NCBI GenBank assembly: GCA_902773215.1
Contig: CACYDQ010000310.1
Coordinates: 1-10,219 of the forward strand
Direction of reading: 5' to 3'
From: an uncultured Spirochaetaceae bacterium
Lineage (GTDB): Bacteria; Spirochaetota; Spirochaetia; Treponematales; Treponemataceae
DNA length: 10,219 bases
Shown one piece after another: positions 458 to 8,119 of the stretch. Each line of letters starts with the position of its first letter. Position 1 is the first letter of the stretch. The notes below the pieces were generated by a model. The model was given only the letters and a program-made list of their open reading frames with translations, was not told the DNA's origin and did no database searches. The position numbers were made by a program, and so were the translations under genes.

Positions 458-2998
458 CTAGCGCAGCTCCTCGAACTCTGCTACCGTGATGGCGGTGTCA
501 AAGCCGCCGACATAATTGTCAAGCTCCGCGTGCCGGTCGATTCCCGTGTAGCTGAGGCTTGAATCCTCGTAGCTCCGGAACTTGAAAATCGCATCATTCA
601 TGACGGGGCCGTTGAAGACGTTCAGGCTTACCAGCAGCTCAAAGTCCTTGAGGCCAAGCCCCGTCACCTTCTTGAAAAGCCCCGGCTCAAGCTGGGTAAT
701 GACATCCCGCAGGCAGTACTCGCGGTAATCGGTCAGGTACATGAACACCGGGATACGGGTGGCGAACTTTATCAGTTTTTCCTGAATCTGCTTCCGCTTG
801 CTCTTGTACTCTTTCTCTTCGTCGCTCAGTTCGCGTTTTTCAGCCTGTGTCATCTTGTCCTGCTTTTCTTTCTTCACCTTTTTGACGGCCTCGCTCTTGT
901 TGATGATTGTCTCAATGTCGCTGTTCAGGTTGCGGAATCCCTCAATGCTCTCAAGGGCCCGCATCGCCTCTGGGTTTGCCATGAGGCGGGCGAGCGTCTC
1001 GTTGTCAACGTTCACGAGTAGCGCGCTTTCCCATCGCTTTGCAAGGAGGGTCGCGCTCGTACCGCTCATCGCCATGTCAAGGATTTCTGTGGCGTTTATC
1101 TGCTTCATCGTGGAACCGTCATAGGCCAGTACCGGCAGGAACGAGATGAATTCCTCCACGAGCTTCTGCGGATTATCCTTGAGAGGGTCCGTGTTCAGAT
1201 TCCGGCTGTAATCGCTTATCTGCTTGAGCGCACGGTCCAACGCGAAGTCGAAGATGTAGCACTCCTGTTTGAGGATGACATTCTTGCCAAGGGAGTCCTT
1301 TACTTCCCAGGGGCTTTGTACGCGGAATGCGCTCTGAAAGTAGGTTTCCGGGCTGTGCAGGTTGCAGAGCATGAAAATACCTGTCCATGGCTTCACGGTG
1401 ACGCCGGTCATCAGCTTACCACAGCTGAGGGTAATTGTCTTTGTCTCAAGCGGATTTTGCATCGCAATCTGGACAGGCTCCAGTGCCGCCATCCCAACCC
1501 CGGCTCCGCTTCCCGCGCAGACAATGACCTCATAGTCATGAAAGAAGACGTTCTGCTTCTCTTTCAAAAGATTTGCCATTGCGAAGCAGGATGCCACGCC
1601 CGGCAGGAGCCACACGGTGTGGCTTAGGACGTTCAGGAGCCGCGTGTCGCTGAAGGGCATAGGGGGCCGCTTGTTCGCGCCAAGCTTCAGGTAGTCAACG
1701 CTCGACGGCAAGTCCGCGCCCCGGATTAAGTCAAGCCATTTCTGTACGTGCTCCTTGTACGTGAACTGCGCGTCTTCCCCAGAACCTTCCGCGCTGAAGA
1801 ACAGGTTCAGGTCGAACTCGTTGAACTCACCGCCCTTCGCGATTTCCTTTATGCGCTCGGGAATCTGGTAGGTCATCATCACCATGCGGGGGAGGGAGGC
1901 ATAGGGATTTGGCTTTCCGGCAGGCCACTCTTGTTTGGCTTTCTGCTCGTAGGAGTATGTCCAGCTGAAAATCTGTTCTTCGATGAACTCGCCACTGTTC
2001 AGTGCACGGAAAGGCGTTCCGCTCAAAAAGAGATAGTGTTCTGTCGTGATGGGAAGCGAGTCTTCGTTCTGGGCATTGGCAGCCTCTTCCTTGATGTATT
2101 TTTCTTCATCGAACGCATTCAGGCTCTCTTCATCTTCACTTTCAAAGAGCCGTTTCGCATTTTCCCGCCACGCACCGAAGTGGTACTCGTCGAAAATCAC
2201 CAGGTCCCAGTGCGTCGTGTGAACCCATTCGTTACGGGCCTTGATGCCGCCGTTCTCGTTCGTCCCGAGGAAGTCCTGAAAGCTTCCGAAGCAGACGACA
2301 GGCTTTGTCTTGTTACAGGCCTCATAGGACATGCCGTCACGGCAGACGAACTGCCAGCCATCGAACAGGATGTGGTTCTCCAAATCCTCTTGCCACGCGC
2401 TCTGGACTGCTGGTTTGAAGGTAAGAACAAGGACACGCTTTGCGCCCATTTTCCGGGCAAGGAGGTAGGATGCAAATGTTTTCCCGAATCGCATCTTGCA
2501 GTTCCAGAGGAACTTCGGGACAAAGCTTTTTGGAAGGGTACCGTTCGCTTTTTCCGCTTTGATTTTCTTGAAATACGCGAAGGTCTTTTCGACCGCCAGT
2601 TCCTGCTCGGGGCGCGGGGCAAAATCTGCGCTGCGGGTTTTCAGGCTTGCGTCTCCTGTCCTGACCGCCATGATTGCCCCGCGGACATCTTTTGCCGTGC
2701 AACGGAACCATTCGCTCTTGCTGTCCTTCTGGTCACGAACGGCCTTGATTCCCCACTGCTCCAGCACCCGGTGGACATCGTGATCCATGAACGCAGACCC
2801 GTCCTGCCTCATCGCGCTTTCCGTCAGCTCAACCGTCCACGACCGCGTTGGCGTGAGCGTCGGGTAATGCTCCTTCATCCGTTCCTCGATTGGTCGCTCT
2901 GTGTAGCCGACTTTCAGCATCCCGGGAAAGCGGGTGTCCGAATATGCGTAGATGATGGGTTTTGCCTGGGGACGTTTTGGAAAGAACTTCTGTTCCAT
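458..2998 (-). CDS. GIY-YIG/T5orf172-like nuclease domain fused to SF2 helicase (restriction subunit)
   Basis: An 846-residue protein, probably the DNA-cleaving and translocating subunit of the restriction-modification system encoded upstream. Residues 15-105 look like a GIY-YIG nuclease of the T5orf172/MUG113 type: IIYAY (15-19), LKVGYT (28-33), Arg40 and a late SEWF (95-98) whose Glu96 could be the catalytic acid. Superfamily 2 helicase motifs follow: RPEQ (129-132), a Walker A shortened to RFGKT (170-174), DEYH (270-273), SGTPF (326-330), GKLMTGVT (527-534) and QSAFRVQ (555-561). Residues of about 690-740 are highly charged and may be a coiled coil. The ATG lies 10 bp after the methyltransferase stop with only a weak Shine-Dalgarno, suggesting translational coupling. 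The family assignment rests on motifs; the cleavage site and mechanism cannot be read here. Confidence 0.88.
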   Translation of the reverse strand: MEQKFFPKRPQAKPIIYAYSDTRFPGMLKVGYTERPIEERMKEHYPTLTPTRSWTVELTESAMRQDGSAFMDHDVHRVLEQWGIKAVRDQKDSKSEWFRCTAKDVRGAIMAVRTGDASLKTRSADFAPRPEQELAVEKTFAYFKKIKAEKANGTLPKSFVPKFLWNCKMRFGKTFASYLLARKMGAKRVLVLTFKPAVQSAWQEDLENHILFDGWQFVCRDGMSYEACNKTKPVVCFGSFQDFLGTNENGGIKARNEWVHTTHWDLVIFDEYHFGAWRENAKRLFESEDEESLNAFDEEKYIKEEAANAQNEDSLPITTEHYLFLSGTPFRALNSGEFIEEQIFSWTYSYEQKAKQEWPAGKPNPYASLPRMVMMTYQIPERIKEIAKGGEFNEFDLNLFFSAEGSGEDAQFTYKEHVQKWLDLIRGADLPSSVDYLKLGANKRPPMPFSDTRLLNVLSHTVWLLPGVASCFAMANLLKEKQNVFFHDYEVIVCAGSGAGVGMAALEPVQIAMQNPLETKTITLSCGKLMTGVTVKPWTGIFMLCNLHSPETYFQSAFRVQSPWEVKDSLGKNVILKQECYIFDFALDRALKQISDYSRNLNTDPLKDNPQKLVEEFISFLPVLAYDGSTMKQINATEILDMAMSGTSATLLAKRWESALLVNVDNETLARLMANPEAMRALESIEGFRNLNSDIETIINKSEAVKKVKKEKQDKMTQAEKRELSDEEKEYKSKRKQIQEKLIKFATRIPVFMYLTDYREYCLRDVITQLEPGLFKKVTGLGLKDFELLVSLNVFNGPVMNDAIFKFRSYEDSSLSYTGIDRHAELDNYVGGFDTAITVAEFEELR

Positions 2999-3008
2999 AC
3001 TTGCTCAC

Positions 3009-4532
3009 TTACTCCATGGGACGGATCATAGATTCGATGAATGCGATTTCTTCATTGGTCAGTTTGTACTTGGCGTAGAGCTCCTCGTCTGTCCATGGCT
3101 TGGAGAAATCCTGCATGGGGACGAATATGAAGTTGTCACGTACAATGTGCATTGATGAAATTGTCAGCAGTATCAAGTATCTTGCAAATCGTGTAGAAAT
3201 ATAGGATGCAAAATTCTTTGCAGAAGATTCATCATCAAAAGTATCGAGGACAATATAGGTTTCTGTTGGTACTTCATTCGGTGAAAGAATTTTTATCTTT
3301 GTTGTGACGCTTGATTTCCCATCACTTGCATTATTTACTCCGCCCCGATCAGGGTTAAGGGTTCCAATGGTAATCTTATATTTCCGAGAAAGTTCCTTGT
3401 TTTTTGTAACTTCATTTGGAGCGATAAAAGATTTTCCACTGCTGCTGATAAGTGTCATGCAATCTGGAAATTCCTCTTTCTTTCCTCTGTATGATGTAGT
3501 AAAGCCAAAAGAGTTTCTTGGAAGAACATAATCAGAAAGATATGTTGAGGATTTTTCTTTTACCTTATGAATGATATCGACACCAATATTATCAGACACT
3601 ACTATTGGGAATTCTGATAAATCGCGAGACCTTGTGTTCTGTGAATTTTGGCTTATAGAAGTCAATTCACAAAGCCCCTGATAGGTTTTCTGCCAGAGAA
3701 AATAACAAACGCCACCAGCTATATCAACACCTTGAAAGCATTCTCGACTCTTGGGGTAGTTTACCAACGTTTTGATTCTTTTATCATTTATCATTTCTGA
3801 TCGGAAATCATTCAGACCTTTTCCTCCTGCAAACCATCGGGATGGAATAATCATCGTTATAAACCTTGGTTGCAATCTTTTTGCCTGCTGGATGAAATAA
3901 TGATAAATAGGCTTTGCACTTATTTCATTGGCTCCCCCTCCATCATTCAGCTGATACGGCGGATTCCCGATAATCACATCAAACTTCATATTCGCTAATT
4001 CTCCCGGCAGTGCGTTGTGTATGAACTGGTAGGCGTGGCTCTCAAGTCCCTCGCGGGTTTCGTCTCCGTACTCGCTCCTGCTCGCGCCGCAGTAGCGGCA
4101 TTTGTCGCCCGCCCATTCATGTTTTGTATCCGCGTAAAAAATGTTCCCTTGCACAGTCCCGAAGTGCGAGACGCTGTACCTGCCCGACGCATCCTTTGAG
4201 CAGTACACGCTCCGGCGGGACAGAAGACCCGTGAGCTCCGTAATCGAAATGGCATAGAGCTGTTCCTGAAAGATGTGGTCAACCCGTTCCTGCAAGTCCG
4301 GGATTGTATCCGCGAGCCCCTCAATCAGGCGTTTGGCAATCTCGCGCAGGAATACCCCGCTCTTGCATGCCGGGTCAAGGAACTTCGCGTCCGGGTCCGA
4401 GAACAGCTCCTGTGGCAGCAGGTTCAGCATCGCGTTCGCGACTTCCGGCGGAGTAAAGACCTCGTCGTTGCTCAGGTTCGCAAGGCAGGACAACACGTCG
4501 GGATTATAGCCAGATTCATTCTGACTGCTCAT
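3009..4532 (-). CDS. Eco57I-like N6-adenine DNA methyltransferase
   Basis: A 507-residue protein expected to methylate adenine N6 within the system's recognition site. Residues 23-32 (DEVFTPPEVA) are the usual lead-in of N6-adenine methyltransferases. Motif I at 51-62 reads FLDPACKSGVFL, with Lys57 where DPACGSG would have Gly. The catalytic motif IV, NPPY, is at 190-193, followed by IIPSRWFAGG (228-237). A Cys-x2-Cys (145, 148) suggests a small metal-binding insert. The C-terminal part is presumably the target-recognition region. The ATG at 4532 is chosen because an AGGAGGG box lies just upstream. The open frame continues 43 codons further, but that stretch overlaps the preceding gene and looks non-coding. 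This gene overlaps the end of the upstream subunit gene by 17 bp. Base composition shifts sharply inside the gene (separate entry). Confidence 0.9.
   Translation of the reverse strand: MSSQNESGYNPDVLSCLANLSNDEVFTPPEVANAMLNLLPQELFSDPDAKFLDPACKSGVFLREIAKRLIEGLADTIPDLQERVDHIFQEQLYAISITELTGLLSRRSVYCSKDASGRYSVSHFGTVQGNIFYADTKHEWAGDKCRYCGASRSEYGDETREGLESHAYQFIHNALPGELANMKFDVIIGNPPYQLNDGGGANEISAKPIYHYFIQQAKRLQPRFITMIIPSRWFAGGKGLNDFRSEMINDKRIKTLVNYPKSRECFQGVDIAGGVCYFLWQKTYQGLCELTSISQNSQNTRSRDLSEFPIVVSDNIGVDIIHKVKEKSSTYLSDYVLPRNSFGFTTSYRGKKEEFPDCMTLISSSGKSFIAPNEVTKNKELSRKYKITIGTLNPDRGGVNNASDGKSSVTTKIKILSPNEVPTETYIVLDTFDDESSAKNFASYISTRFARYLILLTISSMHIVRDNFIFVPMQDFSKPWTDEELYAKYKLTNEEIAFIESMIRPME
3121..3960 (-). 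other. AT-rich block inside the methyltransferase gene
   Basis: Sample 60-base lines in this block have about 30-35% GC (3121, 3181, 3541), while lines just outside have 53-62% (3061, 4081, 4381, and 2581 in the helicase). On the protein the block runs from directly after NPPY (residue about 191) to about residue 470, leaving the last 37 residues in the normal composition. This is where the DNA-recognition domain of such enzymes is expected, so the block probably marks a recombined specificity segment. Confidence 0.75.
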
Positions 4533-5223: not shown

Positions 5224-5269
5224 GATGTACCTACAAAGTGTAGGAGAGATAACTCTTCTACATATTGTA

Positions 5270-5297
5270 AGTATATCACATTTTCTACGTTTTGTAA
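5270..5297 (-). promoter_or_regulatory. Sigma-70-type promoter of the restriction-modification operon
   Basis: On the minus strand, TTACAA (5297-5292) is followed by a 16-bp spacer and TATACT (5275-5270), preceded by TG at the extended -10 position (TGATATACT). Transcription would start near 5263, giving a leader of about 40 nt before the GTG at 5223. Operator-like sites overlap both hexamers. Confidence 0.7.
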
Positions 5298-5306
5298 CTG
5301 TAAAAT
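5278..5306 (+). promoter_or_regulatory. Weak candidate promoter of the XRE regulator gene
   Basis: TAAAAT (5301-5306) could be a -10 box, with a poor -35 (ACATTT, 5278-5283) at 17 bp. It sits between operator sites 3 and 4, so the regulator could repress its own gene. No Shine-Dalgarno precedes the ATG at 5334, implying weak or leaderless translation. Confidence 0.3.
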
Positions 5307-5333
5307 TTGCTTTTTTCCTTACAAAATGTAGAT

Positions 5334-5675
5334 ATGACAGATGGAACGGGTGTTTTGGGAATACTTTCATCAAATATCAAGAGTTTCAGAAAGGAAAAAG
5401 GCTGGACCCAAGAGAGACTGGCTGAGAAAGCGGAGTTATCCGTGCAAGCAATCAATTTTTTTGAGGGGAAGCGCCGATGGCCAGGAGAGGATTCTATTTC
5501 GAAAATAGCAAATGCTTTAGAGATTGAGGTCTACCAACTTTTTATCCCGCAGGATACAACGCCCGTCTTAATAGAAGAGACTCCGGAGAACGAGCGGCTT
5601 CGCAGCCAGATTACCGGGGAGGTCGTCGCCGACATCCGGCGTCTGCTGAACGCCGCGCTGGATAAATGTCTATGA
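5334..5675 (+). CDS. XRE-family transcriptional regulator, probable controller of the restriction-modification operon
   Basis: A 113-residue protein. Residues 11-65 form an XRE/Cro-type helix-turn-helix: SSNIKSFRKEKGWTQERLAE, then ELSVQAINFFEGKRRWP (recognition helix about 36-43). The C-terminus has its own module, GEVVADIRRLLNAALDK, preceded by an acidic linker. Size, position and divergent orientation resemble C (controller) proteins, which bind palindromes between themselves and the R/M genes to delay or limit their expression. The four palindromic sites in the shared gap fit this role. The ATG at 5334 is preferred; a TTG at 5307 would add nine residues encoded by operator sequence. No ribosome binding site is visible. 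A degenerate second copy of the 3' end lies at about 6574-6653. Confidence 0.85.
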   Translation: MTDGTGVLGILSSNIKSFRKEKGWTQERLAEKAELSVQAINFFEGKRRWPGEDSISKIANALEIEVYQLFIPQDTTPVLIEETPENERLRSQITGEVVADIRRLLNAALDKCL

Positions 5676-5738: not shown

Positions 5739-6236
5739 TTACTTGCTTTCAATCATATCCAGCAGCTGCTTGTAAAGACGTTCGCTGATATGCCGTCCGG
5801 CATCCCGCAAAATCTCTATCGCGGTCTTGATTTCTTCTTTTGAGATAAGCTTGTCCTCATAAGCCAGCCCTAAGACACCGAGCGTCCCCATGATTTTTAT
5901 GCCCATCCGCATTGCGACTTCACGTCCCCGGATTTCGTCCATTAAAAGCAAATCTGCTTTTCCGCGGTCAGAGAGATAAATAGCCTCGCTCTCTCCTAAG
6001 TCAAGACCTGTAGAACGCCGAAGCAGGGACACATAATCATCATCAATATCCTCAATGACTTGTATGAAATCGCTCCGATTTACGACCTCGGCTTCATCTT
6101 GAAACTTCGGGTTTCCTGTGAGTTCTGTAAAAACACCTCTGGGGATTTGAACCAAGCCGAAAATACTTTCGAGCAGGTCAAGGCGATTGATTTTTAAGAG
6201 TGAGATAATCGGTGTCGTGTCGGAAATGACAATCAT
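5739..6236 (-). CDS. DUF3368-type PIN-like toxin
   Basis: A 165-residue protein resembling the DUF3368 group of PIN-like nucleases, the toxin half of a type II toxin-antitoxin pair and presumably an RNase. The N-terminus MIVISDTTPIISLLK carries the first acidic residue (Asp6), Glu38 follows the PRGVFTEL strand-helix, LDLGESEAI (78-86) supplies Glu82/Glu84, and LLLMDEIRGR (96-105) supplies Asp100: the usual acidic set of PIN folds. Its ATG overlaps the antitoxin stop as ATGA (6233-6236), so the two are translationally coupled. The C-terminal 50 residues (helices after GVLGLAYEDKLIS) match the family's usual extension. The gene appears intact. Confidence 0.88.
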   Translation of the reverse strand: MIVISDTTPIISLLKINRLDLLESIFGLVQIPRGVFTELTGNPKFQDEAEVVNRSDFIQVIEDIDDDYVSLLRRSTGLDLGESEAIYLSDRGKADLLLMDEIRGREVAMRMGIKIMGTLGVLGLAYEDKLISKEEIKTAIEILRDAGRHISERLYKQLLDMIESK

Positions 6237-6523
6237 GCCATCTCCTTCTTTAATGAGCGGAATGTCCGTATGTCCTGCATGATATCGCTGATGTCCATGT
6301 CAAAGTAGGGGAAGCCCATGTCATCATACAGTTCAATCAGGTCGAGCTTCCGTATGCCGAGTATTTCTGCCGCCCTGCCGTGCGAGATGACATTGTTATG
6401 GACATACGGATAGAGGAGGAGGGCGTTTCGTTTCAGCACGTCGCCTGAATCCTGTGCGTATTCATCCGAGAAATACTCCTGCATCGCCTTCGGCACGGTA
6501 ACTTGAATCGTCGCATGTTCCAT
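6233..6523 (-). CDS. UPF0175-family antitoxin
   Basis: A 96-residue protein expected to bind and neutralise the DUF3368-type toxin encoded immediately downstream. The central stretch LLLYPYVHNNVISHGRAAEI followed by LGIRKLDLIELYDDMG is the characteristic UPF0175 helix-turn-helix-like segment. The N-terminal part (ATIQVTVPKAMQEYF) is a strand plus helix. The start ATG at 6523 has AAGGGG six bases upstream. The pair is transcribed from a good promoter at 6570-6542 and, like most such pairs, is probably autoregulated through the antitoxin. Confidence 0.87.
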   Translation of the reverse strand: MEHATIQVTVPKAMQEYFSDEYAQDSGDVLKRNALLLYPYVHNNVISHGRAAEILGIRKLDLIELYDDMGFPYFDMDISDIMQDIRTFRSLKKEMA

Positions 6524-6541
6524 AATCAGCCCCTTGCCATG

Positions 6542-6570
6542 AGTGTACCGCAGAGGGAGGCTTTTTTCAA
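6542..6570 (-). promoter_or_regulatory. Sigma-70 promoter of the UPF0175/DUF3368 pair
   Basis: On the minus strand, TTGAAA (6570-6565), a 17-bp spacer and TACACT (6547-6542) lie 19 bp upstream of the antitoxin ATG. The -35 region overlaps the 5' side of the regulator remnant on the other strand. Confidence 0.65.
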
Positions 6571-6573
6571 GCT

Positions 6574-6653
6574 TGCAGGCAGCCAGATTGCTGGGGAGGT
6601 TGTTGCCGACGTGTGGCGGCTGCTGAATGCCGCGCTGGACAAATGGCTATGTT
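6574..6653 (+). pseudogene. 3' fragment of a second XRE-regulator copy
   Basis: Read on the plus strand this encodes SQIAGEVVADVWRLLNAALD and then KWL, matching the C-terminus of the regulator at 5334-5675 (SQITGEVVADIRRLLNAALD, then KCL) with only a few changes. The similarity is also visible in the DNA. No helix-turn-helix is encoded upstream: the frame begins at an ATG at 6539 inside unrelated promoter sequence and reads to a stop at 6682, giving a 47-codon remnant. It most likely survives from a deleted or replaced neighbouring system with a related regulator. Confidence 0.75.
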
Positions 6654-6779
6654 TGTGTCGAAATAGAAGCTCGTGCGCATAAAGTTGTCAGTGAAGCTGA
6701 ACGACTGTTCGTTGTACGTGTGCAAAATCCGCCGCATCCCGCTCCTTAGGCTTGATTCAAAGAGTTTGAGACAGCGGCA
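6651..6779 (-). pseudogene. C-terminal remnant resembling RecG-like/AlbA_2 ATP-binding regulator
   Basis: The minus strand encodes, without a plausible start, LFESSLRSGMRRILHTYNEQ followed by SFSFTDNFMRTSFYFDTN. A G-M/I-R-R-I helix followed by a Phe/Asn-rich strand pair (FxxxDNFxRxxFY) is typical of the extreme C-terminus of AlbA_2/divergent AAA-4 proteins often annotated as RecG-like transcriptional regulators. The frame has no upstream body; the YoeB-type toxin gene abuts it at 6780. At its other end it meets the regulator remnant. Assignment is by motif resemblance only. Confidence 0.5.
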
Positions 6780-7040
6780 TCATACATAATGTCCGCGGCA
6801 TGAGACAATCTGAAGCATTCCGTTTTCCATACGGTAAACAAGGCGGTTTGTTTCGTCTATGCGGCGGCTCCATAGGCCGCTCAGATTCCCTTTCAAAGGC
6901 TCCGGTTTACCGGTTCCGGTATCAAATCCGCTCCGCTCGATGTCCTGAATCAGGGCATTTATCCGTTTGAGAGTCTTTTTGTCTTGAGTTTGCCAATAAA
7001 GGTAATCGTCCCAAGCTTCATCGAACCAGATTTTCTTCAT
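6780..7040 (-). CDS. yoeB: YoeB-type mRNA interferase toxin (Txe/YoeB family)
   Basis: An 86-residue protein of the RelE superfamily, YoeB branch, which cleaves mRNA in the ribosomal A site. The whole chain fits: KIWFDEAWDDYLYWQTQDKK at the start, GKPEPLKGNLSGLWSRRID in the middle and an SCRGHYV end. Counting from the ATG at 7040, Glu47, Arg66, His84 and Tyr85 match the catalytic Glu46, Arg65, His83 and Tyr84 of E. coli YoeB. Length matches too (84 residues in E. coli). The ATG overlaps the antitoxin stop as TGATG; a TTG one codon earlier is less likely. The gene looks intact and active. Remnant DNA begins directly after the stop. Confidence 0.93.
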   Translation of the reverse strand: MKKIWFDEAWDDYLYWQTQDKKTLKRINALIQDIERSGFDTGTGKPEPLKGNLSGLWSRRIDETNRLVYRMENGMLQIVSCRGHYV

Positions 7041-7267
7041 CAATCTACCTCGATGAGCTCGTGCTCTACCCCTTTCCCTTCATCGAGTGCTTTTATCCCG
7101 CGTTCAATATGCTCAATATTGCTTTTTGAATAAAACAAATCTTCATCGCTGTCTTTTGAAGCCCAGTTCTGCAATGCCTGGGAAAGCCGCGTCAAGAGCA
7201 TGACGCACTGGTTGTACGAAAAGCTGTCCACTTCATTCAAAACCGCGTTAAATGCAATGTCGCTCAT
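7040..7267 (-). CDS. Antitoxin partner of the YoeB-type toxin
   Basis: A 75-residue protein directly upstream of and overlapping the toxin gene, so the antitoxin role follows mainly from position. The N-terminal half (FNAVLNEVDSFSYNQCVML and a following helix) looks helical and unlike the Phd/YefM fold that usually partners YoeB. The acidic C-terminus GKGVEHELIEVD resembles the toxin-wrapping tails of RelB/YefM-type antitoxins. The ATG at 7267 is chosen for the AGGAGG box seven to eight bases upstream; the frame is open for 16 more codons but those cover the promoter. Confidence 0.82.
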   Translation of the reverse strand: MSDIAFNAVLNEVDSFSYNQCVMLLTRLSQALQNWASKDSDEDLFYSKSNIEHIERGIKALDEGKGVEHELIEVD

Positions 7268-7286
7268 AAAGGCCTCCTGCGTATTC

Positions 7287-7333
7287 AGTATATCGCTTCT
7301 TTTGGGGAACGGCAACCGTATGTCCCTGTTCCC
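7287..7333 (-). promoter_or_regulatory. Promoter and possible operator of the YoeB-type pair
   Basis: On the minus strand, TTGCCG (7315-7310), a 17-bp spacer and TATACT (7292-7287) form a good sigma-70 promoter 19 bp before the antitoxin ATG. An inverted repeat GGGAAC (7305-7310) / GTTCCC (7328-7333), arms 23 bp apart, overlaps the -35 and could be the autoregulatory operator. Confidence 0.6.
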
Positions 7334-7342
7334 TCCCCCCTT

Positions 7343-7409
7343 CCGACAGCAAAAATCGGTCAGTTTTCAGTAAAAACCCTCTATCTTTTTCCGCAATCCT
7401 GCCTTATCA
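7343..7409 (+). repeat. 67-bp dispersed repeat, copy 1
   Basis: Matches 9924-9990 in the same orientation at 62 of 67 positions without gaps, and similarity stops abruptly at both ends. It begins with a small dyad (CCGA...TCGG) and ends in CTGCCTTATCA. It lies 70 bp upstream of the third antitoxin gene, ahead of that gene's own -10 box. Confidence 0.9.
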
Positions 7410-7448
7410 GATGAAACTCTGATTCATCTGGAACATAAGTCAAAAGCG

Positions 7449-7457
7449 TGATATACT
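7449..7457 (+). promoter_or_regulatory. Extended -10 promoter of the third toxin-antitoxin pair
   Basis: TGATATACT (7449-7457) is an extended -10 box, 21 bp before the antitoxin ATG, with a weak -35 (TGGAAC) 17 bp upstream. The 14 bases GTGATATACTTACA (7448-7461) are identical to the core of the restriction-modification promoter read on the minus strand. Confidence 0.6.
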
Positions 7458-7478
7458 TACAGATACTGGGGGTGATAC

Positions 7479-7709
7479 ATGACTATCGAAGGGTACTATG
7501 ATGGCAGGCAATATGTTGCTCTGGAGGATGTTTCCATAAAGGAGAATCAGAAAGTCCGGATTACCATTCTTGATGAATACTTTGAGCCGGATGAACATGA
7601 AAAGAACGTGGATCTTCTTGCGCGGTATAAAGGTTTCGGCGGAAGGATATGGGAGGAAGATCCTCAGGAGTATGTTTCTGCGCTGAGGGCCGAGGAACGG
7701 TCAAGATGA
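7479..7709 (+). CDS. Antitoxin of a VapBC-like pair
   Basis: A 76-residue protein upstream of a PIN toxin. MTIEGYYDGRQYVALEDVSI and KENQKVRITILDE suggest a short beta-rich N-terminal domain like AF2212/DUF104-type or AbrB-like antitoxins. The remainder (LLARYKGFGGRIWEEDPQEY) is a flexible acidic/aromatic tail suited to block the toxin's active site. GGGGG (7468-7472) is the ribosome binding site, six bases before the ATG. Its stop overlaps the toxin start as ATGA. The role is inferred from order and overlap; the exact antitoxin family is uncertain. Confidence 0.82.
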   Translation: MTIEGYYDGRQYVALEDVSIKENQKVRITILDEYFEPDEHEKNVDLLARYKGFGGRIWEEDPQEYVSALRAEERSR

Positions 7710-8119
7710 GCCCGATATTCTTGGACACGTCCCCGCTCATTTATTATTTGGACGGAATTGAGCCGTTTGCATCAAAGGTGGAAAAATACCTGCTTTCCGC
7801 AATGGATGAGAAATGCCTCCTGTATACTTCCACCATAACGGACACAGAGTATTTTGTGTATCCTTATCGCGAGAAAAATTTCGTGAAAATCATGGGATAC
7901 AAAGCATTCTTGCAGAATGCACATATCCTAAAAATCAGTATCGGGGAAGATATAGCCGAAAAAGCCGCTCAAATTCGTGCTGAATATCCTGGAATAAAAA
8001 CTGCGGATTCATTGCAGCTTGCGGCTGCTATTGTATACGATTGCGATGTTTTTTTGACGAATGACAAGCAGCTGCGGCAAATCCAGGAGCTTGGCATAAA
8101 ACTTGTGGACGAGCTGTAG
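7706..8119 (+). CDS. VapC-like PIN-domain RNase toxin
   Basis: A 137-residue PIN-domain protein, the usual VapC length. SPIFLDTSPLIYYLDG carries Asp7, TITDTEYFVYPY carries Glu48, KTADSLQLAAA carries Asp101 and FLTNDKQLRQI carries Asp120: the four acidic residues that bind the catalytic metal, in their canonical order. It is thus expected to be an active site-specific RNase. The ATG at 7706 overlaps the antitoxin stop; an upstream GTG-initiated frame from 7649 would add 19 residues that overlap the antitoxin and look non-native. Length, catalytic set and context agree, so confidence is high that it is intact. Confidence 0.92.
   Translation: MSPIFLDTSPLIYYLDGIEPFASKVEKYLLSAMDEKCLLYTSTITDTEYFVYPYREKNFVKIMGYKAFLQNAHILKISIGEDIAEKAAQIRAEYPGIKTADSLQLAAAIVYDCDVFLTNDKQLRQIQELGIKLVDEL

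What the first reader, a model, noticed from the sequence alone, without database searches (positions are those of the whole stretch)
5231..5331. Phased operator array shared by a restriction-modification operon and its XRE regulator
Four 13-bp sites (yTACA-n3-TGTAr) fill the divergent gap. Three are spaced exactly 27 bp apart, and they coincide with the -35, the -10 and the leader of the restriction-modification promoter; the fourth touches the regulator's ATG. This arrangement implies cooperative binding with graded control of both genes. Controller-protein circuits are known for type II systems, but I do not recall one described for this nuclease-helicase type of system.
Basis: partly seen in the sequence, partly recalled or inferred. 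Interest (0 to 1): 0.75.

Follow-up and report, generated by a model that had tools for sequence, protein, structure and literature searches.

The report
Swappable restriction-gene controller with operator array
Four matching DNA sites between a bacterial restriction-modification operon and a small regulator gene look like that regulator's own binding sites, because across related gut Treponema the sites change their letters when the regulator's DNA-reading helix changes, and the same switch also stands in front of other kinds of genes.

Summary
In detail: four TACA-N3-TGTA sites (one with a single mismatch) fill the divergent gap, 27/27/34 bp apart; shuffles give 0.37 such matches per window. 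In 37 related Treponema regulators the best further site lies at the second or third place in 36 (shuffles: mean 2.2, at most 9); the site farthest from the regulator is often weak.
Strongest evidence: the half-site has at least four versions (TACA, TCCA, TGCA, TACT), and the version follows recognition-helix residues 39 and 42 of the neighbouring XRE protein. Helix-blind, anchor-free typing is uniquely right in 35 of 37, 2 ties; label shuffles at most 22. Classes A and D are not single clades on a tree without that helix. So the XRE very probably binds the array, most likely repressing both promoters.
The R-M reading is only partly right. Beside this regulator stand the same M1-M2-R operon (8 of 37), fused IIG-like systems (2), a C5-methylase system (1), or other genes. 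Conversely, 17 of 18 fetched M1 loci in the family have a divergent small HTH gene, 9 from other XRE groups. Binding, cooperativity and direction of control are untested. New variant of the controller-protein/RptR kind.

The parts
5231..5243 (.). operator site 1 (CTACAAAGTGTAG), in the R-M leader
   Evidence: least conserved site: arms 0.70 identical in 9 class-A loci; score 9 of 14 or more in 13 of 37
5258..5270 (.). operator site 2 (CTACATATTGTAA), beside the R-M -10 and over the expected start site
   Evidence: arms 0.85 identical; score 9 of 14 or more in 34 of 37
5285..5297 (.). operator site 3 (CTACGTTTTGTAA, 1 mismatch), overlapping the R-M -35
   Evidence: arms 0.89 identical; score 9 of 14 or more in 25 of 37
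5319..5331 (.). operator site 4 (TTACAAAATGTAG), 2 bp before the XRE ATG
   Evidence: arms 0.89 identical
5270..5275 (-). proposed -10 (TATACT, preceded by TGA) of the R-M promoter
   Evidence: hexamer at this fixed place within 1 mismatch of TATAAT in 25 of 37 loci; shares letters with the outer end of site 2
5293..5298 (-). proposed -35 (GTTACA, 17-bp spacer) of the R-M promoter
   Evidence: position only
5301..5306 (+). proposed -10 (TAAAAT) of the XRE promoter; no good -35 seen
   Evidence: by eye; L025 reads TATAAT here
5334..5675 (+). XRE regulator, 113 aa, HTH_3 plus C-terminal helix
4516..5223 (-). M1, 235 aa (GTG start), methylase-like: motif I present, no [DNSH]PP[YFW] found
3009..4532 (-). 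M2, Eco57I-type N6-methylase with NPPY (ATG start chosen from homologue lengths)
458..2998 (-). R, 846 aa, T5orf172 (GIY-YIG-like) nuclease domain plus helicase motifs (RFGKT, DEYH)

Best explanation
The 113-aa XRE protein is a dedicated autoregulator of the divergent M1-M2-R operon. Its dimers bind the four palindromic sites. Sites 3 and 2 sit on the -35 and the -10/start of the R-M promoter and shut it; site 1 adds a downstream block. Site 4, just before the XRE start codon, caps the regulator's own expression. The result is a low, self-limited level of the nuclease operon, with a burst when the locus enters a cell without the repressor. Shown by sequence: the array, its conservation, and covariation of helix and operator. 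Inferred: binding, dimers, repression, the burst. The unit (regulator plus array plus promoters) is a Treponema-family cassette that has been joined to different R-M systems and to other genes, with its operator code re-tuned through residues 39 and 42.
For: Array positions conserved: the best-scoring further site lies in the second or third place in 36 of 37 loci, shuffled regions mean 2.2, at most 9 of 37. Operator arms 0.70-0.89 identical against spacers 0.33-0.57 and upstream DNA 0.33 in 9 class-A loci. Operator class follows helix class: 37 of 37 anchored; 35 of 37 uniquely right and 2 ties when anchor-free and helix-blind, label shuffles mean 10.7, at most 22; the same typing inside the gene is uniquely right in 0 of 37. 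On a helix-masked tree classes A and D are not single clades; the four classes need 5 changes where 3 would be the least. Fold matches NHTF and controller proteins C.AhdI, C.BclI, C.Esp1396I. M1-M2-R loci keep matched helix and operator although the class differs: A in L023/L024/L026/L031/L037, C in L034/L043, D in L040. 17 of 18 fetched M1 loci of the family have a divergent small HTH gene.
Against: No binding, footprint or expression data. The cores used to score sites come from these same sequences, many of them related. Promoters are assigned by consensus only; the -10 is not found at the fixed place in 12 of 37, among them the R-M loci L031, L037 and L040, and it shares letters with site 2, so it is not independent evidence. 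Site 3 is not recognisable in some class-C loci (L034, L043, L100); site 1 is weak or absent in many. L106 has the class-C helix but no clean array. With R and M in one operon, a repressor alone does not delay R behind M. The XRE promoter lacks a good -35, which would also fit activation. In 26 of 37 loci I found no R-M gene directly on the divergent side.
Confidence: 0.72

Rival explanations
1. C-protein-like switch: at low level the XRE activates (its own -35-less promoter, or the R-M promoter), and represses only at high level, giving delayed expression.
For: Fold close to C proteins; XRE -10 candidate without a good -35; C proteins activate at low and repress at high level (PMC12707154 passages).
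Against: Sites lie on the -35, the -10/start and downstream of the R-M promoter, not upstream as for an activator; no activation data.
Confidence: 0.2
2. The array is read by another DNA-binding protein and the XRE gene merely sits beside it.
For: No binding shown.
Against: Operator letters covary with the XRE recognition helix in 35 to 37 of 37 loci, and classes A and D are scattered on the helix-masked tree.
Confidence: 0.04
3. The sites belong to an interspersed repeat: the genome has intergenic arrays of about 22-bp units with GTTTCA/GTTACA-N3-TGTAAC.
For: Such units on C70, C191 and C21 of the window's genome match the pattern with up to one mismatch.
Against: Different period (22, not 27/27/34) and flanks; the ORFs listed around them show no XRE by eye; the window array is conserved with the XRE in other genomes.
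Confidence: 0.02

Closest known systems
C.Kpn2I controller circuit (PMC6237814, passages including part of the abstract)
   Same: C and M genes divergent; the C protein blocks the M -35 and acts as a roadblock near the start of its own gene
   Different: Kpn2I R gene separate; binding site inside the C gene; here four sites and R in the M operon
C proteins of type II systems: C.AhdI, C.BclI, C.Esp1396I (folds; passages of PMC3874152, PMC12707154, PMC5282649, PMC3115060)
   Same: small XRE-type HTH protein beside an R-M system, palindromic operators over its promoters, autogenous control
   Different: operators usually built on AGTC/GACT; C usually co-transcribed with R; here TACA-N3-TGTA, divergent, four sites
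C.Csp231I / EcoO109I class (PMC3115060, passages)
   Same: extra C-terminal helices; A-rich operator centre; the paper divides this class by recognition-helix residues and sites
   Different: CTAAG-N5-CTTAG, two operators; type II
RptR (PMC12255303: abstract, one section in full, passages)
   Same: small repressor, several sites in the promoter of a restriction island; also found before non-R-M modules
   Different: 6-bp TAGCTA in three direct repeats, 79 aa, type I systems, Gammaproteobacteria
HsdC of Mollicutes (PMC5282649, passages)
   Same: C-like regulator before type I and type II systems, operator classes differing by lineage
   Different: direct repeats such as (GTGTTAN5)2; lies within the hsd operon
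CapH of CBASS (PADLOC capH)
   Same: best PADLOC hit of the XRE (4.2e-11)
   Different: no CapP-like peptidase among the 10 window proteins scanned

Membership tests
type II C (controller) proteins | small XRE-type HTH protein with C-protein fold | tested here: met
   HTH_3 1.6e-11; C.AhdI and C.BclI among the top folds; PADLOC Control_protein only 1.6e-4
type II C (controller) proteins | linked to R-M genes | tested here: met
   window and 7 other M1-M2-R loci; but only 11 of 37 loci of the XRE family have R-M genes directly on the divergent side
type II C (controller) proteins | C-box built on AGTC/GACT | tested here: not met
   sites are TACA-N3-TGTA; classes B, C and D also differ
type II C (controller) proteins | C gene upstream of and co-transcribed with R | tested here: not met
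   divergent from M1-M2-R
type II C (controller) proteins | autogenous activation then repression | not testable with these tools
   needs expression data
RptR | TAGCTA-type 6-bp sites in direct repeats, type I system downstream | tested here: not met
   sites; R-M type
RptR | sequence homology to RptR | not tested
   no RptR sequence was fetched
C.Csp231I class | C-terminal helical extension | tested here: met
   model helix 84-112, pLDDT 82-91 in the blocks there; dimer not modelled
C.Csp231I class | CTAAG-N5-CTTAG operators | tested here: not met
CapH (CBASS) | CapP peptidase and CBASS genes beside it | tested here: not met
   none among the 10 window proteins scanned
IIG-like nuclease-helicase/Eco57I R-M system (PADLOC PDLC03626) | nuclease-helicase half and Eco57I methylase half | tested here: met
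   R 7.8e-31 and M2 1.6e-45, split over two genes

The most novel reading that the evidence does not exclude
Treponema carries a family of exchangeable regulator-operator cassettes that speak different DNA codes set by two helix residues (39 and 42): A/T39 with F/A42 goes with TACA, N39 with N42 with TCCA, N39 with D42 with TGCA, L/Q39 with G/A42 with TACT. These cassettes are moved between restriction systems of at least three kinds and other genes, and several can work side by side in one cell without cross-talk (the two genomes with two counted members hold different classes: A and C, B and C): a natural set of orthogonal repressors that may decide which restriction systems can share a host.
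Probability: 0.5. Interest if true: 0.65.

Novelty: new variant of a known kind. Interest (0 to 1): 0.55.

Why it matters
If true, a nuclease-helicase/Eco57I restriction system, for which my searches listed no described regulator, has a controller that can be tested directly, and the family gives a ready-made protein-DNA code with at least four specificities. It would let one test whether shared or different operator codes decide which R-M systems can coexist or be exchanged (C-protein incompatibility is described for type II systems, PMC3874152 passages), and how one regulator unit is re-used for non-defence genes.

Tried and rejected
A motif-free palindrome profile with badly chosen anchors was noisy; redone with anchored sites, anchor-free and against shuffles, because anchoring with helix-derived cores favours agreement. 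Even with good anchors the motif-free profile is only clear for class A (places 0, -34, -61); in B, C and D other places score as high. The genome-wide motif scan is not evidence of a regulon: with 1 mismatch the reversed control pattern is commoner (172 against 110 hits), and the 22-bp units on C70, C191 and C21 are another repeat. XRE relatives with other helices (34 of 131 loci left out by the helix pattern, mostly L121-L153) were only looked at: some seem to have arrays of other letters, not counted. The other divergent HTH genes of M1 loci (9) showed no common array. I could not read a -35 for the XRE promoter. The M2 tree conflicts with the R and M1 trees: perhaps swaps of the specificity part; not followed.

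Rows dropped before counts: of 41 distinct loci, L111, L113 and L135 (other or broken members) and L106 were dropped, leaving 37. L106 has the class-C helix and no clean array; typed anchor-free it gives C as the best core (23 against 20), on weak sites. Some of the 37 are near copies (L027/L028, L042/L044, L032/L036/L039). Cargo: L052 and L104 show no divergent-strand ORF in the DNA held, L041 only an incomplete one starting further away. Of the non-R-M loci only selected genes were scanned: 20 proteins, and 10 proteins (9 of them from those 20 plus none other than listed there). For M1, 18 of 19 strong places were fetched; fragment L172 was not counted. Outside the family, G055 (L185) shows no divergent HTH ORF near M1, and in G053 (L184) the fetched stretch ends too close to tell.

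Full report
What is there. The window is a whole contig (C310) of a 2.7-Mb draft genome in 523 contigs; its nearest named relatives are Treponema / Spirochaetales assemblies, many from rumen and other stomach samples. On the minus strand lie M1 (235 aa), M2 (Eco57I-type N6-methylase) and R (T5orf172 nuclease domain with a weak ResIII match); on the plus strand a 113-aa HTH_3 protein. PADLOC matches R and M2 to the two halves of one type IIG model, PDLC03626. M1 has methylase motif I but no [DNSH]PP[YFW], and M2 has NPPY, in 8 of 8 loci. Between the two sides lie the four sites, 27/27/34 bp apart, the only four matches with up to one mismatch in the window, against 0.37 expected.

Promoters. 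On the R-M strand TATACT (5275-5270, with TGA before it) and GTTACA (17-bp spacer) fit a sigma-70 promoter; site 3 overlaps the -35, site 2 touches the -10 and covers the expected start, site 1 lies in the leader. On the XRE strand TAAAAT at 5301-5306 is a possible -10 without a good -35; site 4 lies between it and the ATG. These assignments are by consensus. A hexamer within one mismatch of TATAAT stands at the same place in 25 of 37 related loci (26 of 37 for TATACT), against 2.4% of all hexamers in these regions. The hexamer shares letters with the outer end of site 2, so it is not independent of the operator; the misses include R-M loci L031, L037 and L040 and all six class-D loci.

Conservation. 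XRE relatives were sought in 274 genomes of the family (241 have some match at E 0.001 or better, mostly distant) and in the named genome collection (41 loci; every one at 42% identity or more is titled Treponema, Spirochaetales or Spirochaetaceae; the three weakest matches come from other groups or a Spirochaetia assembly). Of 131 loci examined, 97 had the helix pattern used, 41 were distinct, and 37 were kept (L106, L111, L113 and L135 dropped). Every one of the 37 was anchored on a site at the start codon (score 10 of 14 or more). At the second place (-60 to -63) 34 of 37 score 9 of 14 or more (shuffles mean 0.5, at most 4); at the third (-33/-34) 25 of 37, or 33 at 8 or more (shuffles 0.4, at most 3; 1.4, at most 7); at the fourth (-86 to -90) 13 of 37 (0.8, at most 6). 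The best further site lies in the second or third place in 36 of 37 (2.2, at most 9). In nine class-A loci, including the window, the operator arms are 0.70-0.89 identical, the spacers 0.33-0.57, the DNA upstream 0.33; the sites were placed at their best match within one to three bases, which favours them slightly.

Covariation. The half-site differs: TACA (11 loci), TCCA-like (5), TGCA (15), TACT (6). The class follows residues 39 and 42 of the XRE: A/T with F/A, N with N, N with D, L/Q with G/A. Anchored typing agreed in 37 of 37, but the anchors had been set with the helix-derived cores; so it was repeated without anchors: 35 of 37 uniquely right, 2 ties (both class B, tied with A); in 10,000 label shuffles on average 10.7 and never more than 22 were right; the same typing inside the gene was uniquely right in 0 of 37. 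Related sequences are not independent. On a tree built without the recognition helix, however, starred branches force at least two changes each for classes A and D, and all four classes need 5 changes where 3 would be the least; so helix and operator have switched together more often than a single origin per class allows (two changes may be a gain and a loss). This is the main reason to name the XRE as binder. Two genomes hold two of the 37 each, and both have different classes: L042 (A) with L100 (C), and L035 (B) with L102 (C).

Structure. AlphaFold (mean pLDDT 87.6) gives five helices of the HTH part and a long C-terminal helix 84-112. Best solved folds are NHTF of Neisseria and the controller proteins C.AhdI and C.BclI, then SinR, ClgR and C.Esp1396I. 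A dimer on DNA was not modelled.

Not only restriction. Beside these 37 regulators the divergent genes are: M1-M2-R in 8; a methylase plus a fused helicase-methylase of the same IIG-like family in 2 (L025 scanned; L045 by similarity to it); a C5-methylase with a type II endonuclease match in 1 (L100); elsewhere, on the divergent strand, BspA-LRR proteins, an ankyrin-repeat protein, an LPP20 lipoprotein, a DUF1232 protein with a zinc-ribbon protein, or genes without a family; in L038 a type I HsdM is the third gene. L052 and L104 show no divergent-strand ORF (only selected genes were scanned). Conversely, M1 was sought in the same 274 genomes: 43 have some match, 19 places are strong, 18 were fetched. 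Of these 18, 8 have this regulator, 9 a different divergent small HTH gene (Pfam HTH_3 or HTH_26 above cut-off in 9 of 9), and one (L168) none that I found. So a divergent XRE is the usual partner of this R-M type in the family, while its subfamily is exchangeable. In another family of the order (G055, L185) no divergent HTH gene was seen near M1.

Exchange. For the 8 loci, the R tree joins L040 with the window and L026 (97/98), while the helix-masked XRE tree puts L023, L024 and L026 together against L040 and the rest (100/99); the two are incompatible. R and M1 reject L031+L037 as a clade (AU p below 1e-6), although their XREs have the same helix motif and the same operator class; the XRE tree groups them only weakly (62/73) and does not reject L031 with L034 and L043 (p 0.40). 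Gene exchange explains the L040 conflict; chimeric assembly of single loci cannot be excluded from here.

Mechanism. From the positions I expect repression of the R-M promoter at sites 3 and 2, help from site 1, and self-limitation at site 4, as C.Kpn2I blocks its M promoter and acts as a roadblock on its own gene (PMC6237814). Graded or cooperative binding is possible but unsupported: 27 bp is about 2.6 turns. Activation of the XRE's own -35-less promoter cannot be excluded.

Prior work. Controller proteins, their operators and incompatibility are well known (PMC3874152, PMC12707154, PMC3115060; passages). Operator classes differing by lineage were described for Mollicutes HsdC (PMC5282649, passages), and RptR shows several sites and association with non-R-M modules (PMC12255303: abstract, one section, passages). 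A systematic study of C-protein sites (Sorokin 2009) is cited in PMC3115060, but its text is not held, so I cannot say whether it covers spirochaetes. No title or abstract start in the listings (one search found no paper) describes a regulator of this R-M type or this Treponema family.

Noticed in passing
5602-5674 and 6579-6651: 73-bp direct repeat (85%): the 3' end of the XRE gene occurs again beyond the DUF3368/UPF0175 toxin-antitoxin-like pair, as if the pair lies between two XRE gene ends, one of them a remnant.
   Followed up: partly
5739-8119: Cluster of toxin-antitoxin-like genes next to the R-M locus: DUF3368 with a sub-threshold UPF0175 match, YoeB with the small gene before it, and a PIN-domain gene with a small gene before it.
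   Followed up: no
L172 (G257:C338): The C-terminal piece of M1 (residues 191-234, 91%) lies beside a gene like the window's PIN gene: a shortened or rearranged version of this region.
   Followed up: no
L001 1500-1570, L002 1470-1520, L186 1065-1135: Arrays of about 22-bp units, GTTTCA/GTTACA-N3-TGTAAC-TAGNCT, on three contigs of the window's genome; they resemble the operator but are another repeat.
   Followed up: partly
L162-L171: M1 loci with divergent HTH genes of other XRE groups; some gaps hold repeated short words (for example AGAGAAGTT in L167, CATATAGCA in L171) that may be operators of other kinds (by eye).
   Followed up: partly
L121-L153: More distant Treponema XRE genes (helix SEQTVNSIEG, QMINDIEG, RQMMNDIEG) also seem in part to have repeated sites before the start codon with other letters (by eye).
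   Followed up: partly
8 M1-M2-R loci: The M2 tree disagrees strongly with the R and M1 trees, suggesting that M2 or its recognition part is exchanged between operons.
   Followed up: no
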